Part shown: positions 10,839 to 25,990 of the stretch, piece after piece
Layout: the number at the start of each line of letters is the position of its first letter
Numbering within the stretch: position 1 is the first letter of the stretch
Source of the DNA: Anaerolineaceae bacterium
GTDB lineage: Bacteria > Chloroflexota > Anaerolineae > Anaerolineales > Villigracilaceae
DNA: 39,914 nt
Assembly: GCA_009885525.1 (NCBI GenBank)
Contig: VFKN01000133.1
Location: forward strand, 1 to 39,914
Reading direction: 5' to 3'
Translations under genes and position numbers: made by a program
Notes under the pieces: model-generated
Database searches by the model: none
What the model saw: only the letters and a program-made list of their open reading frames with translations
Told to the model about the DNA's origin: nothing

Positions 10839-10844
10839 AAAAAT

Positions 10845-10877
10845 TAAAGGTTCAAGGTTTAAAGTTGAAGGATAAAA
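10845..10877. repeat. GGTTGAA/AAGTTGAAGG-type short repeat tract
   Basis: attaaaggttcaaggtttaaagttgaaggata; similar tracts at 11292, 12269, 13190 and 25907. Confidence 0.6.
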
Positions 10878-10878
10878 T

Positions 10879-11295
10879 ATGACGACTGCAAAGCGGTTTG
10901 AGGAATTGGAAGTTTGGCAGAAAGCGAAGGAGTTAACAAACTCGGTTTACAAACATTCCTCTGATGGAGCTTTTGCGCGTGATTTTGGTTTGCGCGATCA
11001 AATGCGCCGAGCCGCAGTTTCGATCATGTCAAATATTGCTGAAGGGTTTGAAAGCCAGACGCAATCTATGTTTATAAAATATCTTGGTCATGCAAAAGGT
11101 TCTGCGGGCGAGTTGCGCGCCCAACTTTATATTGCCAGAGATCAAGGCTATATTACTGACGAGGAATTTAAGACAATATTTTCAACAGCAGAAATATGCA
11201 GCAAACAACTTGCCCGTTTTATTCAATATCTAGAATCCCAACCCAATGCGCGGCGCGTCCGCGAAGAAGGAGTAACTTACAATGTCGAACAATAA
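10879..11295 (+). CDS. Four-helix-bundle protein (S23 / 23S rRNA intervening-sequence family)
   Basis: [23 protein letters not shown]...[61 protein letters not shown] is the canonical family pattern. Confidence 0.92.
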
Positions 11296-12289
11296 CCTTA
11301 CACCTGCAACTTTTCAACCTTCAACTTTTTGGCAAAACAAACGTGTGATCGTCACCGGCGGCGCGGGCTTTCTCGGCTCGTTCGTTATTGAAAAACTGAA
11401 AGAACGCGGCGCAACCGATATTTTTATCCCCCGCAAAAAAGATTACAACCTCACCGAGCGCGAAGCCATCGAACGCTTCTACGCGGATGCGCTTAAAGAT
11501 ATCGACCCGAAGAATGTAGTCGTGATTCACCTCGCAGCCAACGTGGGCGGCATTGGCGCGAACCGTGAACATCCCGCCGAATTCTTTTATGACAACATGA
11601 TCATGGGCGTGGAATTAATGCATCAGGCTTACAAACGCGGCGTGGGAAAATTCGTGGCGACAGGAACCGTATGCGCCTATCCTAAATTCACGCCCGTCCC
11701 TTTCAAAGAAGATGATCTGTGGAACGGTTATCCCGAAGAGACGAACGCGCCTTATGGTCTCGCCAAAAAAATGATGCTCGTACAGGCGCAGACTTATCGT
11801 CAGCAATATGGCTTCAACGCCATTTATCTTCTGCCCGTAAATCTTTACGGCCCGCGCGATAATTTCAACTTGCAGACCTCGCATGTGATTCCGGCACTTG
11901 TCCGCAAGGCAGTTGAAGCGGGCGAACGCGGCGACAAGGAATTACAAGTCTGGGGCGACGGCTCCCCCACCCGCGAATTTTTATATGTTGAAGACGCCGC
12001 CGATGGCATCCTGGCCGCCACTGAAAATTACAACGGTGACCTGCCTGTCAACCTCGGCTCTGGTTATGAAATTTCAATCAAAGACTTAACAGAAATGATC
12101 GTGAAGATGACCGGCTTCGAAGGCAAACTTCACTGGCAAACCGATAAACCCAACGGCCAGCCCCGCCGCGGACTCGATGTGACCCGCGCGAAGGAATTAT
12201 TCGGCTGGAGTGCGCAAATCTCATTTGATGAAGGCATGAAGCGCACCATCGAGTGGTTCAAGGAGAATAGGTTGAAAGTTACAGGTTAA
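11282..12289 (+). CDS. GDP-L-fucose synthase-like NAD-dependent epimerase
   Basis: [66 protein letters not shown]; 14-nt overlap with the upstream gene. Confidence 0.85.
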
Positions 12290-12340
12290 AAGGTTGAAGG
12301 TTATTCAACCTTCAACCTTAAACTTTCCAACCTTAAACAC
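12269..12340. repeat. GGTTGAA-type tract forming a hairpin
   Basis: aggttgaaagttacaggttaaaaggttgaaggtt-a-ttcaaccttcaaccttaaactttccaacctt. Confidence 0.75.
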
Positions 12341-12343
12341 AAA

Positions 12344-13189
12344 ATGACCGAAATCATAAAACACGAACCAACTACTGTTTACATCAAACCGCCTAAAGGC
12401 TTCGCCGCACTTAACCTGCGCGACCTTTGGATCTATCGCGAACTGGTCTTCTTTATGATCTGGCGCGATATTAAAGTCCGCTACAAACAAACTTTGCTCG
12501 GCGCATTATGGGCGATCATCCAACCTGTGCTGACCATGCTCGTCTTCACATTTTTGTTCGGCAAGATCGCAAAGGTTTCATCAGATGGCATTCCATATCC
12601 CATTTTTTCTTACACGGCACTTTTACCGTGGGGACTCTTTGTTGCCGCCCTTAACCAAGCCAGCCGATCACTTACGTCCAATCACAACATGATCACGAAG
12701 ATCTACTTTCCGCGGCTGATACTACCCGTGGCGTCAGTACTTGGCGGTCTCGTGGATTTTGCCATCGCATTCGTTGTGTTGATATTTCTGATGATTTACT
12801 ACAAAGTATCTCCCGCGTGGGCAAGTCTTTGGACCTTGCCGCTCTTCCTGCTGCTGGCGATCATCACGGCATTAGGCGTGTCGCTATGGCTCTCTGCGAT
12901 CAACGTTCAATATCGTGATGTGAACTACGCGCTCCCTTTTATGACTCAATTCTGGTTGTTCATCACACCCGTTGCTTATTCTTCCAGTGTGATCTCTCAA
13001 AAATGGCAGCTGGCATATTCCATGAATCCCATGGCGGGCGTGGTCAATGGATTCCGCTGGGCGTTACTCGGCTCGGGTAATGGACCGGATGCTTCGTTAT
13101 GGGTTTCAGTGGCAATATCATTTCTTATTCTATTTAGCGGGTTGTTCTATTTTCGCAATATGGAAAAGACCTTCGCGGATACCATATGA
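12344..13189 (+). CDS. ABC-2 type polysaccharide exporter permease (Wzm-like)
   Basis: LVFFMIWRDIKVRYKQTLLGALWAIIQPVLTMLVFTFLFGKIAKV; YRDVNYALPFMTQFWLFITPVAY; next to a Wzt-like ATPase. Confidence 0.93.
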   Translation: MTEIIKHEPTTVYIKPPKGFAALNLRDLWIYRELVFFMIWRDIKVRYKQTLLGALWAIIQPVLTMLVFTFLFGKIAKVSSDGIPYPIFSYTALLPWGLFVAALNQASRSLTSNHNMITKIYFPRLILPVASVLGGLVDFAIAFVVLIFLMIYYKVSPAWASLWTLPLFLLLAIITALGVSLWLSAINVQYRDVNYALPFMTQFWLFITPVAYSSSVISQKWQLAYSMNPMAGVVNGFRWALLGSGNGPDASLWVSVAISFLILFSGLFYFRNMEKTFADTI

Positions 13190-13274
13190 GTTGAAGGTTA
13201 TAGGTTGAAAGTTGCAGGTTAAAAAACTTCAACCCTTCAACTTTCAACCTTTCAACTTTCAAACCTTAAAACCC
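13190..13274. repeat. GGTTGAA-type tract forming a hairpin
   Basis: ttgaaggttataggttgaaagttgcaggttaaaaaacttcaacccttcaactttcaacctttcaactttcaaacctt. Confidence 0.75.
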
Positions 13275-14635: not shown

Positions 14636-16288
14636 ATGGCAAAAACATCCCCCCTTCGCAACCTATTAGGCGACCTGCCCTTCACTGCCGAAATTGATTG
14701 GATGCTGCGGTCAAAGAATCGTCCGCGCAAAGATCATTTCAATTTGGACAAATTGCAAAAATCATTGCCCGCCGCGCGCGCGGTAGTTGAACCATTTGCA
14801 AAGAACGCAAAACTACATGCTGAGCATGGTCGAAGCACCGGCAAAAAGGTTTTGTTCTTTGCCACCTTGCATTATTGGATTGAACAATCTGCGTATCTTG
14901 GTTTGGCGCTGGCGGGGCTTGGGCACAAGGTCACGCTGTTGACGCTCCCCTATTCCGAATGGCATAAAGAAAAAGATAATTTCACACAACGACAGCGCGT
15001 ACTTCATACCAAAGATGCGCTCGCTTCATTATCTCCGCTCATCAAGCATGTTTCCATGCTTGACCTTCGACCCTTCGACAGGCTCAGGGCAACGCCTTCA
15101 ACCTTCGACCTTCCAACTGCCATTCAAGCCGACATCAAAGAGATTTCACTTTGGGACGTGCAATACACCTTGATGCGTGAAGAAGTGGATATGAACGATG
15201 CGGGCGACCGCGCGTTGTATGATCTGCGGATTCAACGTAATACCTTCGCCGCCAAAGCCGCGCTCGAATGGCTGCAATCCAACAAGCCTGATGTGGTTTT
15301 AATTCCCAACGGTTTAATTCTCGAAATGGGAATTGTCTTCCGCGTGGCGCGTTATTTGAATATTGACGCGGTCACTTATGAATTCAACGATCAACGCGAA
15401 CAGATCTGGCTCGCGCAAAATTCATCCATCATGCAGCAGGAAACCGATTATCTTGTGAATGCGCGCTGTCATTTGCCCATCACCGATGAAATGTTCGAGC
15501 GCGTTGCGGATCTGGAAAACGCCCGCCGTGGCGCACGCGTGTGGGGTAAATCCAAACGCTTGTGGCAATACGTCTCCTCGCAGGGCGCAATCGAGACGCG
15601 CAAAATACTCGGCTTGGATGATCGCCCCGTGGTGATGCTGGCCGCGAATGTTTTGGGTGACAGTCTCACCTTGGGTCGTGATATCTTCGCGGCTTCGATG
15701 ACCGAGTGGATCACGAAGACCGTTCAATATTTTGCAAAACGCACTGATGTGCAAATGGTCATCCGCGTGCATCCGGGGGAGAAACTCGTTCCGCAGGCGA
15801 AATCGATGGGCACAGTGGTGCGCGAGGCGCTGGCGGAAATCCCCAATCATATTCATATCATCGGCGCGCTGGATAAAATCAACACGTATGATTTAATCGA
15901 GATCGCGAATGTTGGTCTGGCATACACAACAACAGTTGGACTCGAAACCGCGATGAATGGCCGCCCCGTGATTTCATGCGGCGATACGCATTATCGCGCG
16001 CGCGGATTTACCCTCGACCCGAATACATGGGATGAATACTACGCCACGCTCGAAAAAGTTTTAGCGGATATTCCCGCCCACCAATTGAACGAAAAGCAAA
16101 CCGAGTTCACATGGAATTACGCTTACCGATTCTTTTTTGAATATCCGCGCCCCTTCCCGTGGCGCTTGATGAATTTCTGGGATGACCTTGAAGTCTGGCC
16201 GCTTGAGAAAGTATTGAGCAAAGAAGGTCTGGCGCAATTCAAAGATACATTTGACTTTTTGGTGAATGAACCATTCACATGGAAATGA
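14636..16288 (+). CDS. Capsule-polysaccharide-synthesis-like glycosyltransferase
   Basis: KKVLFFATLHYWIEQSAYLGLALAGLGHKVTLLTLPYSEW N-terminal Rossmann; DVQMVIRVHPGEKL; LIEIANVGLAYTTTVGLETAMNGRPVISCGDTHYRARGFT, typical of capsule-synthesis GTs. Confidence 0.7.
   Translation: MAKTSPLRNLLGDLPFTAEIDWMLRSKNRPRKDHFNLDKLQKSLPAARAVVEPFAKNAKLHAEHGRSTGKKVLFFATLHYWIEQSAYLGLALAGLGHKVTLLTLPYSEWHKEKDNFTQRQRVLHTKDALASLSPLIKHVSMLDLRPFDRLRATPSTFDLPTAIQADIKEISLWDVQYTLMREEVDMNDAGDRALYDLRIQRNTFAAKAALEWLQSNKPDVVLIPNGLILEMGIVFRVARYLNIDAVTYEFNDQREQIWLAQNSSIMQQETDYLVNARCHLPITDEMFERVADLENARRGARVWGKSKRLWQYVSSQGAIETRKILGLDDRPVVMLAANVLGDSLTLGRDIFAASMTEWITKTVQYFAKRTDVQMVIRVHPGEKLVPQAKSMGTVVREALAEIPNHIHIIGALDKINTYDLIEIANVGLAYTTTVGLETAMNGRPVISCGDTHYRARGFTLDPNTWDEYYATLEKVLADIPAHQLNEKQTEFTWNYAYRFFFEYPRPFPWRLMNFWDDLEVWPLEKVLSKEGLAQFKDTFDFLVNEPFTWK
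15061..15120. repeat. Dispersed repeat sequence lying in frame inside the glycosyltransferase gene
   Basis: cccttcgacaggctcagggcaacg (compare acttcgacaggctcagtacaacg inside 24019-24192) followed by ccttcaaccttcgaccttcc. Confidence 0.6.
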
Positions 16289-24192: not shown

Positions 24193-25905
24193 TTATGTAT
24201 TACGAATGTTTCCGCCCCGCCAAATTTTGAAATCTTTCAAACTCGATCCGCCTAGAAATTCGCGGACGATAGAGTTGGCGGGGATGTGAGTCATATCCAA
24301 CGGCAGGAACCATTCGAGGAAGGCGAGCAATCTGCGCGCTTCGATGAATTCGGGGGCGCGGTGCGGAACCTGACGCAGGAGCGGCTCGGCCAGTGGTTTC
24401 AGCGCGGCGAGTTCATACACCAGCGCGGAGTTGAACATCACATCCGCGTTTTCCTGATACGGGAAGATGTGTTTCTTCTCGCCGCTGCGAACAGATTCCC
24501 AGCGCGCGATTGTCTGCGTCGCCGAATATCCGCGCTCGCGCGCATCGCGCACAATTCGGCGGAAGAGGCGCGTATCAGTGGTCGAGACGCGGTTGTGACG
24601 ATCAAGGTTGAGCTGCGTCAGGGCGGAGACATATATTCGAAACGCGGAAGTAGATAGGTGGTCGGGAATCAATCGCGGATTCATCCCGTGGATTCCTTCG
24701 AGGATGAGCGGCTGTCCGCTTTTGAGTTGGATAATATCCCCCGCTTCACTCATCCCGGTTCTGAAGTTATAACGCGGCAGCTGGACTTCTTTGCCATCCA
24801 AAAGTTTTTCAAGATCTTCGGCAAGCCGATTTAAATCCAGGGCTTCAAGCGCTTCGTAATCGGGTTTGCCATCTGCACCAAGCGGAGTTTTACCGCGCTC
24901 GACAAAATAATTATCGAGTTCAAGCGGAAATGGCGAAACGCCGCGCGCAAGCAATTGCACCGCGAGGCGGCGCGATGAAGTTGTCTTGCCCGAAGAGGAA
25001 GGACCCGCGATGAGAATAATGCGCGAATTATTTTGCGCGATCTGCTGCGCGATATCCGCGACATTTTGTTCGTGCAGGGCTTCGGAGACCAGCACGATTT
25101 CATCGGCGCGTCCATCTTCAATGGCGTCATTGAGCGCGCCGACATTATCAATATCAAGGCGGGTCAGCCAATCACCATATTGGCGGAATGTATTTAATAA
25201 TTTTGGATAATCGCCCATCGGTTCAAGCTGCGTGGGCGAATGACGGCGCGGAAATTGCAGCGTGAATCCACCGCTGATGAGCTTGAGTCCAAACCAGCAT
25301 AAGTATCCGGTGGATGGAACCATGTAACCGTGCAGATAGTCCATGCGCGCGTTGAGGATATAAAGTGTGAGGTAATCTTTTTGGCGGTGCGAAAATAAAC
25401 GGACTTTATCGTCATAACCAAGATTCTTGAAATATTCGATGGCCTCTTGAATGGGAACTTGCTTGCGATCAAGCGGCTGATCCTCCGCCGCCAATTTTTG
25501 CATATGCGTTTTGAGCGTATTCAATTCATTTTGCGTAAGCGCACTGCGGCCTGTGACCTGGCAATAAAATCCGCCGGATGAAACGGAATGATCAATGGTC
25601 AATTTGGCGTCGGGAAAAATCTCGCCGAATGCGATCTCAAGCAGGAAGATAAGCGAGCGGCGGTAAATGCGCGAACCGTCAGCAGTATCCATTGTGACGG
25701 GTGTGCAATTCCCCTCGAGATCAACAGGATAGGTCAGCTCGTGAATTTCGTTGTTGATGATCGCGGCCACGATGGGTGCTTTGAAATCATCTTTTACCGC
25801 TTTCAAGAACTCCCCCACCTGTGCGCCGCGCGGACCTGAAAGCACACGCCCATCGGAGAGATGGAGTTCGACGGTCTTGCTGGGTTGAACAATATTTATT
25901 GTCAT
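24193..25905 (-). CDS. TGS-domain-containing uridine kinase-like (nucleoside kinase) protein
   Basis: N-terminal TGS-like/ThrRS-editing-like region; Walker A LIAGPSSSGKTTSSRRLAVQL; SPFPLELDNYFVERGKTP; PRYNFRTGMSE; ILEGIHGMNP. The listed upstream start (25962) lies in repeat sequence; MTINIVQ is preferred. Confidence 0.85.
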   Translation of the reverse strand: MTINIVQPSKTVELHLSDGRVLSGPRGAQVGEFLKAVKDDFKAPIVAAIINNEIHELTYPVDLEGNCTPVTMDTADGSRIYRRSLIFLLEIAFGEIFPDAKLTIDHSVSSGGFYCQVTGRSALTQNELNTLKTHMQKLAAEDQPLDRKQVPIQEAIEYFKNLGYDDKVRLFSHRQKDYLTLYILNARMDYLHGYMVPSTGYLCWFGLKLISGGFTLQFPRRHSPTQLEPMGDYPKLLNTFRQYGDWLTRLDIDNVGALNDAIEDGRADEIVLVSEALHEQNVADIAQQIAQNNSRIILIAGPSSSGKTTSSRRLAVQLLARGVSPFPLELDNYFVERGKTPLGADGKPDYEALEALDLNRLAEDLEKLLDGKEVQLPRYNFRTGMSEAGDIIQLKSGQPLILEGIHGMNPRLIPDHLSTSAFRIYVSALTQLNLDRHNRVSTTDTRLFRRIVRDARERGYSATQTIARWESVRSGEKKHIFPYQENADVMFNSALVYELAALKPLAEPLLRQVPHRAPEFIEARRLLAFLEWFLPLDMTHIPANSIVREFLGGSSLKDFKIWRGGNIRNT

Positions 25906-25906
25906 G

Positions 25907-25990
25907 AGGTTTAAGGTCGAAGGTTGAAGGTTGAAGGTCAAAGGTTGAAAGTCAAAGGTCAAATTGACTTTAGACTTTTGACTTTTGACA
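25907..25990. repeat. GGTTGAA/GGTCAAA-type tract
   Basis: aggtttaaggtcgaaggttgaaggttgaaggtcaaaggttgaaagtcaaaggtcaaattgactttagacttttgacttttgac. Confidence 0.75.

What the first reader, a model, noticed from the sequence alone, without database searches (positions are those of the whole stretch)
10845..11332. Four-helix-bundle (S23/IVS-like) gene bracketed by GGTTGAA repeat tracts: candidate mobile unit
This family is known from insertions in 23S rRNA and is related to the Avd accessory protein of diversity-generating retroelements, but here it sits in a polysaccharide operon. It is flanked at 10845-10877 and 11292-11332 by GGTTGAA-type tracts, which also occur without the gene at 12269, 13190 and 25907. 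This is compatible with a mobile or repeat-associated unit with solo repeats elsewhere. No reverse transcriptase or TR/VR pair is visible.
Basis: inference. Interest (0 to 1): 0.65.

Follow-up and report, generated by a model that had tools for sequence, protein, structure and literature searches.

The report
S23 gene inside heptamer inverted repeats
A small bacterial gene of unknown function (S23, a relative of the Avd protein of retroelements) sits here, and in most cases checked across many bacterial phyla, between two mirror-image runs of a seven- or eight-letter DNA repeat whose sequence differs from gene to gene but goes with the type of S23 protein, which points to an overlooked mobile, RNA-hairpin-forming unit.

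Summary
The window's S23 gene (10879-11295, PF05635 E=7e-35) lies between a GGTTGAA-type tract (5' arm) and its inverted counterpart (3' arm). GGTTGAA is not the shared feature: other S23 genes of this genome have other units (AGTGGAT, TTACGAT, AGAGAAC, TAGTTTG). The kind of repeat is shared. Over three sets, 139/179 S23 genes have inverted-repeat flanks (score >=16) against 111/929 neighbouring genes (107 non-syntenic S23: 81; ParE control 0/24; unbiased background 20/534). The period is 7 nt, sometimes 8; other lags show nothing. It recurs in about 15 phyla. Arms are oriented (conserved AG in the 5' arm, z=8.3), and their sequence follows S23 protein similarity at non-homologous sites (0/2000 permutations). 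At this operon junction 5 of 29 congeners carry the S23 unit, 7 are empty, 17 hold other insertions, mostly hairpins. The genome's two RT-linked true Avd genes lack the tracts. Best reading: an IVS-like S23 element outside rRNA, travelling with its own arms, which form a long RNA stem; arm binding by the S23 oligomer and RNase III excision are inferred. No paper found in the searched library links S23 to such repeats.

The parts
10839..10877 (+). 5' arm: degenerate GGTTGAA-type period-7 tract (AAAGGTTCAAGGTTTAAAGTTGAAGG); contains the likely Shine-Dalgarno GAAGG of the S23 gene
   Evidence: pairs with the 3' arm in the predicted fold (duplex -22.4 kcal/mol)
10879..11295 (+). S23 / 23S_rRNA_IVP four-helix-bundle gene, 138 aa
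   Evidence: PF05635 E=7e-35, TIGR02436; AF2 pLDDT 90; fold match 2GSC, 2RLD, Avd 4DWL; dN/dS 0.05-0.10 between G000 and its 5 orthologs
11293..11333 (+). 3' arm: inverted tract (AACCTTACACCTGCAACTTTTCAACCTTCAACTTTT), which also encodes the new N-terminus of the downstream fcl-like gene
11282..12289 (+). GDP-L-fucose-synthase-like gene whose start codon now lies inside the 3' end of the S23 gene
   Evidence: NF047922 E=4e-89, below that model's cut-off; N-terminus compared with congeners
12267..12333 (.). solo GGTTGAA hairpin (both arms, no gene) at the fcl|ABC-permease junction
   Evidence: congeners hold other hairpins or none here
13187..13269 (.). solo GGTTGAA hairpin at the permease|ATPase junction
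15091..15122 (-). short GGTTGAA-type tract (reverse sense)
25904..25963 (+). single-arm GGTTGAA/GGTCAAA tract

Best explanation
This is an S23 element of IVS type outside rRNA: an S23 gene nested between two inverted period-7 arrays that belong to it. SHOWN: S23 genes of many bacterial phyla lie between inverted period-7 (sometimes period-8) arrays; the arms are oriented, with a conserved AG on the coding strand of the 5' arm; arm sequence follows the S23 protein subfamily at unrelated genomic sites; the unit is present at some and absent from other orthologous operon junctions; the protein is under purifying selection. INFERRED: (1) gene and arms move or are copied together. (2) In the operon mRNA the two arms pair into a long stem enclosing the S23 cistron; RNase III, as in 23S IVSs, could cut the stem and release the S23 message without harm, because the cut falls between cistrons. 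(3) The S23 oligomer (five chains in each solved homologue) binds the NAG repeats of its own 5' arm, one unit per subunit, much as TRAP binds (G/U)AG repeats; this would explain the fixed spacing, the strand asymmetry and the co-divergence with the protein, and would let S23 repress its own translation, since the likely Shine-Dalgarno sequence lies in the 5' arm. (4) Gene-less hairpins of the same unit are gene-less derivatives. How new copies are made is not known.
For: Inverted flanks: 64/80 against 40/583, 66/87 against 55/293 across phyla, 139/179 against 111/929 over all sets, 81/107 after removing syntenic copies, against 20/534 genes in 676 kb of unbiased sequence and 0/24 ParE genes. 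Periodicity in both flanks peaks at lag 7 (p=2e-20, 4e-18), weakly at 8, at no other lag from 4 to 12; direct repeats are not enriched in the close relatives and only weakly across phyla (p=0.008). AG in conserved columns 96 against 52 expected, z=8.3. Arm similarity of non-syntenic S23 pairs rises with protein identity; at >=60% identity 0.210 against 0.079 +/- 0.013 permuted, 0/2000; period label clustered on the tree, 0/500. At pheS|pheT three S23 subclades carry three units. Presence/absence at the window junction. Solo tracts near an S23 resemble its arms (p=0.006). dN/dS 0.05-0.10. Arm duplex energies lower than control, p=6e-20. Fold of 2GSC/2RLD/Avd.
Against: No binding, processing or transposition was observed. 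Of the six carriers at the window junction, the five resolved lack the native ribosome-binding site and start of fcl, with no clean target-site duplication, so the insertion mechanism is unclear. The whole-region RNA fold is not more stable than shuffles (z -0.58). About a quarter of S23 genes lack clear arms at the threshold used. The AG signal could come from a DNA-level rather than an RNA-level constraint. Homologous loci in related genomes reduce the effective sample size, although the synteny-reduced set keeps the result. The window S23 is not basic (pI 6.7; median of the set 8.6).
Confidence: 0.5

Rival explanations
1. REP/RAYT-like DNA element: S23 with its inverted arms is a transposable unit moved at the DNA level (single-stranded hairpin ends recognised by S23 and a host or borrowed nuclease or polymerase), and gene-less hairpins are its non-autonomous copies; RNA plays no part.
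For: Same layout as RAYT genes between inverted REPs; the same flank score puts an IS200-like transposase candidate (PF01797 E=4e-4, below cut-off) first among 534 unbiased genes. Arms co-travel with S23; genomes with the GGTTGAA S23 at fcl have more GGTTGAA tracts (median 20.5 against 4, p=3e-4, phylogeny not controlled); solo tracts cluster near S23.
Against: S23 has no known catalytic motif and its solved relatives are structural or RNA-associated (Avd in a DGR RNP, 8UB7). Arms are degenerate arrays of variable length rather than a fixed end sequence; no target-site duplication was seen.
Confidence: 0.25
2. Resident regulatory module: S23 is a stationary self-regulated RNA-binding protein; arms are its leader and 3' operator and co-diverge by vertical descent; presence/absence differences are losses.
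For: Purifying selection; the same S23 type kept at pheS|pheT in many congeners with arms diverging by subclade; likely Shine-Dalgarno inside the 5' arm.
Against: Many copies per genome at non-homologous places with the same arms in pairs of more than 65% identity; empty congeneric sites with an intact short native spacer.
Confidence: 0.15
3. Passive hitch-hiking: bacterial intergenic hairpins built of heptamers arise by polymerase slippage or template switching and S23 genes merely happen to lie in them.
For: Heptamer repeats are over-represented in some bacterial genomes, explained by polymerase slippage in the literature (PMC4692102, PMC4679880); other palindromes also sit at these junctions.
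Against: Association absent for ParE genes (0/24) and rare for genes at large (1/534 with both criteria against 44/80); arms follow the S23 subfamily at unrelated sites; strand asymmetry fixed relative to S23.
Confidence: 0.07
4. Degraded diversity-generating retroelement: the S23 gene is a stray Avd.
For: Shared fold.
Against: The genome's two real Avd genes match bAvd PF22296, lie beside RT genes, and lack the arms; the window S23 matches PF05635 alone and no RT was listed in the window.
Confidence: 0.03

Closest known systems
23S rRNA intervening sequence (IVS) with S23 ORF (Coxiella, Leptospira; PMC4990558)
   Same: S23-family ORF enclosed by terminal inverted repeats that form a stem in the transcript; of debated mobile origin
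   Different: Not in 23S rRNA but between protein genes; arms are degenerate period-7/8 arrays; several copies per genome, each with its own unit. Whether IVS stems have the same period was not tested.
REP sequences with RAYT (TnpA_REP) genes
   Same: Gene between inverted copies of an intergenic repeat, with gene-less copies dispersed
   Different: S23 is no tyrosine transposase; the repeat is a tandem array and differs from element to element
Heptanucleotide stems of the cyanobacterial tRNA-Leu intron P6b (Class I TDNGATT, Class II NNTGAGT; PMC4476775) and heptameric SSRs of Xanthomonas and Nostoc (PMC4692102) and Beggiatoaceae TAACTGA (PMC4679880)
   Same: Degenerate seven-nucleotide arrays; in trnL they build a stem whose motif class is replaced at one site
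   Different: No link to S23 genes found in these papers with the terms searched (PMC4476775 was not searched for S23); no large gene-bearing loop described in the passages read
Avd of diversity-generating retroelements (4DWL, 8UB7)
   Same: Same four-helix-bundle fold; part of a nucleoprotein
   Different: No RT partner; period-7 arms instead of TR/VR
TRAP, the trp RNA-binding attenuation protein (own knowledge)
   Same: Ring protein reading regularly spaced NAG triplets; here only an analogy
   Different: Different fold; period 5 in TRAP, 7 or 8 here

Membership tests
S23 / 23S_rRNA_IVP protein family (PF05635, TIGR02436) | Profile match above curated cut-off and four-helix-bundle fold | tested here: met
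   119.9 bits against cut-off 33.8; TIGR02436 111 against 24; fold 2GSC TMt 0.91
23S rRNA IVS | Location inside a 23S rRNA gene | tested here: not met
   No Rfam match in the window; neighbours are polysaccharide genes
23S rRNA IVS | S23 ORF framed by inverted repeats forming a stem | tested here: met
23S rRNA IVS | Excision by RNase III | not testable with these tools
   needs RNA from wild type and an rnc mutant
DGR accessory protein Avd | bAvd profile match and linked reverse transcriptase with TR/VR | tested here: not met
   the window S23 matches PF05635 alone; no RT-like ORF noted in the window; the RT-linked bAvd genes are on contigs C195 and C37
REP/RAYT | Gene between inverted intergenic repeats with dispersed gene-less copies | tested here: met
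REP/RAYT | Y1/HUH transposase gene | tested here: not met
   Pfam scan gives PF05635 alone
Transposon / MITE | Target-site duplication at an otherwise intact empty site | tested here: inconclusive
   empty congeneric junctions exist, but in the filled sites inspected the native RBS and start are lost and no duplication is seen
Heptameric tandem repeats | Period of seven nucleotides | tested here: met
   lag 7 only, with a period-8 minority
TRAP-like RNA binding | Protein oligomer binds the repeated NAG units | not tested
   only the sequence signature was tested (AG z=8.3); five chains in each of 2GSC and 2RLD

The most novel reading that the evidence does not exclude
A bacteria-wide class of selfish or domesticated RNA-hairpin elements in which each S23 protein carries, recognises and co-evolves with its own seven- or eight-nucleotide repeat arms. 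If so, 23S rRNA IVSs would be the rare members that landed in rRNA, part of the unexplained excess of heptanucleotide repeats in bacterial genomes would be their footprint, and a protein-repeat code could be read off the S23 tree.
Probability: 0.4. Interest if true: 0.92.

Novelty: new variant of a known kind. Interest (0 to 1): 0.8.

Why it matters
S23 (IVP, 'four helix bundle protein') genes are common (up to 16 per genome in the relatives searched), under selection, structurally solved, and without known function. A rule linking each protein to a short repeat at its gene's borders gives a direct, cheap test of function (does each S23 bind its own repeat?), a way to trace movement of the elements, and a candidate source for heptanucleotide repeats that are over-represented in some bacteria and so far put down to polymerase slippage. 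It would also connect 23S rRNA IVSs, Avd of diversity-generating retroelements and intergenic hairpins in one family of nucleoproteins.

Tried and rejected
GGTTGAA as the specific S23-associated repeat: rejected, other S23 loci of the same genome have other units. A true 23S IVS in a congener (L123) suggested by one rRNA-like 17-mer: rejected, no LSU rRNA match. DNA search for the empty site of the AGTGGAT element: only dispersed repeats and one contig-end match, no clean empty site. Whole-region fold stability as evidence (z -0.58): not supportive, only the arm pairing is. Direct-repeat flanks: not enriched in the relatives (p=0.88), weakly across phyla (p=0.008). A first profile alignment of 16 diverse S23 proteins was too divergent for the collection scan; a closer set was used. 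No Rfam family covers the tracts. S23 gene orientation relative to its neighbours: at most a slight bias. In the 12 extra S23 genes from isolates the flank score held (9/12 against 16/53) but the lag-7 test alone did not reach significance (p=0.09).

Full report
1. Observation. The window holds a 138-aa S23/IVP gene at 10879-11295 between a sugar epimerase gene and a GDP-fucose-synthase-like (fcl) gene. A GGTTGAA-type tract lies directly before it (10839-10877) and an inverted one directly behind it (11293-11333); further tracts at 12267-12333 and 13187-13269 are complete hairpins, and 25904-25963 is a single tract. GGTTGAA is in fourfold excess over shuffles. The two flanking tracts pair as the outermost stem of the predicted transcript fold, duplex energy -22.4 kcal/mol; the fold of the whole region is not exceptional (z -0.58).

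2. What the repeat is. The genome has 11 PF05635 matches. At the other loci fetched first the flanks are not GGTTGAA but other seven- or eight-letter arrays (AGTGGAT, AGAGAAC, TAGTTTG, TTACGAT, GTAGACAG), most arranged as + arm before the gene and inverted arm behind it. So the class of repeat matters, not its letters. I scored each gene by the local alignment of its upstream flank with the reverse complement of its downstream flank, and by autocorrelation of each flank at lags 4-12. In the genome and its relatives, 80 S23 genes have a median score of 20.5 against 11 for 583 neighbouring genes (p=5e-36); lag 7 stands out in both flanks (p=2e-20), lag 8 weakly, others not (arms listed).

3. Controls. 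Unbiased background: 534 genes in 676 kb of the genome and a complete congener, 20 with score >=16 and 1 with both score and periodicity, against 64 and 44 of 80 S23 genes. The first-ranked background gene is a weak match to IS200-like transposases (PF01797 E=4e-4, below cut-off), framed by inverted palindromes, which suggests that the score finds REP/RAYT-type layouts. ParE genes of the same genomes: 0/24. The two true Avd genes (PF22296, beside reverse transcriptases) lack periodic arms. After merging syntenic copies, 81 of 107 S23 units remain positive.

4. Breadth. Eighty genome-contig loci (Bacteroidota, Chloroflexota, Acidobacteriota, Planctomycetota, Poribacteria, candidate phyla, Desulfobacterota and others, including type strains) give the same result: 66/87 S23 against 55/293 neighbouring genes, p=2e-22, lag 7 p=4e-18. 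Twelve more S23 genes from 18 genomes: 9/12 against 16/53, though their lag-7 signal alone is not significant (p=0.09). All sets: 139/179 against 111/929, p=1e-69, copies not independent.

5. Grammar. In 145 period-7 segments the coding strand of the 5' arm carries a conserved AG (CT in the 3' arm): 96 segments against 52 expected when columns are permuted, z=8.3. Arm similarity between S23 units at non-syntenic places is flat below 55% protein identity and climbs above it; at >=60% identity it is 0.210 against 0.079 +/- 0.013 permuted, 0 of 2000; period 7 or 8 is clustered on the S23 tree, 0 of 500 shuffles as low. At the pheS|pheT junction three S23 subclades (54-62% identical to each other) carry three different units, constant within the two subclades that have several members. 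Solo tracts close to an S23 resemble that S23's arms more than others' (p=0.006), fading beyond about 3 kb; the number of independent loci in this test is small.

6. This locus in 29 congeners. Epimerase|fcl: five have the S23 unit with GGTTGAA-type arms (G000, G064, G012, G071, G018; a sixth, G017, was seen), seven have only the native spacer of 24-29 nt to the FW codon, and 17 hold other insertions, mostly other hairpins (ACGGATT, AATCTCC, GTAGACAG, CGTCATTGCGAGG, CCTGACAGGTC). In the five resolved S23-bearing genomes the native fcl ribosome-binding site and start are gone; fcl now begins with an ATG inside or at the end of the S23 gene, and its first residues are encoded by the 3' arm. The S23 gene of these genomes is under purifying selection (dN/dS 0.05-0.10 where dS could be estimated, including all five pairs with G000). 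The neighbouring fcl|permease junction turns over in the same way.

7. Protein. AlphaFold2 gives a four-helix bundle (pLDDT 90), matching XCC0516 (2GSC) and BT_0352 (2RLD), each with five chains in the entry, and Avd of the Bordetella phage DGR (4DWL, 8UB7). PMC10053308 notes the PF05635/Avd relation.

8. Interpretation. The anatomy is that of an IVS (S23 ORF within an inverted repeat) outside rRNA, and of REP/RAYT (gene within inverted repeats plus gene-less copies). Co-divergence of arms and protein at unrelated sites argues that gene and arms belong together, and is best explained if S23 recognises its arms. A ring of S23 subunits reading NAG triplets every seven nucleotides in the 5' arm RNA, as TRAP reads (G/U)AG triplets, is the model I consider most likely; it is inferred from sequence alone. 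Rivals are a DNA-level element and a resident autoregulated module.

9. Literature. Searches of the held library found S23 IVS papers, heptamer-repeat papers and DGR papers; none of those read links S23 genes to period-7 inverted arrays. The library lacks most subscription journals, so priority is not proven.

Noticed in passing
G000 contigs C195:13785-14941 and C37:21804-23071 (L084, L083): Two reverse transcriptase genes each beside a true bAvd gene (PF22296): probable diversity-generating retroelements elsewhere in this genome.
   Followed up: partly
G000:C94:58847-59095 (L006): An S23 gene interrupted by another palindromic insertion with GGAATTGCCGTGATT / AATCACGGCAATTCC ends.
   Followed up: no
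L078 (L004), L125 (L040), L113 (L038), L094, L101, L088, L120: S23 genes sit between pheS and pheT in several congeners, in at least three subclades with three arm units; T-box leaders lie nearby in L101, L113 and L125.
   Followed up: partly
L037 (G006:C119): The 3' arm of one S23 unit reads as (TTTAGGG)n, identical to the plant telomere repeat; presumably coincidence within the AG-rich heptamer grammar.
   Followed up: no
L169:2998-4311 and other loci of G089: In an Elusimicrobia genome an S23 domain is fused in frame to a PorV-like outer-membrane protein; other S23 matches there lie in open frames of 1182 and 2014 codons.
   Followed up: no
L053, L055, L058, L063, L070, L073, L074, L075 (epimerase|fcl|permease junctions): Orthologous junctions hold a CGTCATTGCGAGG palindrome family; other genomes hold CCTGACAGGTC or GCGGACTGAAGTCCGC hairpins: rapid turnover of unrelated hairpins at operon junctions.
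   Followed up: partly
G071 (same genus): 114 GGTTGAARGTTGAA matches in one genome, many times the genus median: a recent burst of this repeat.
   Followed up: no
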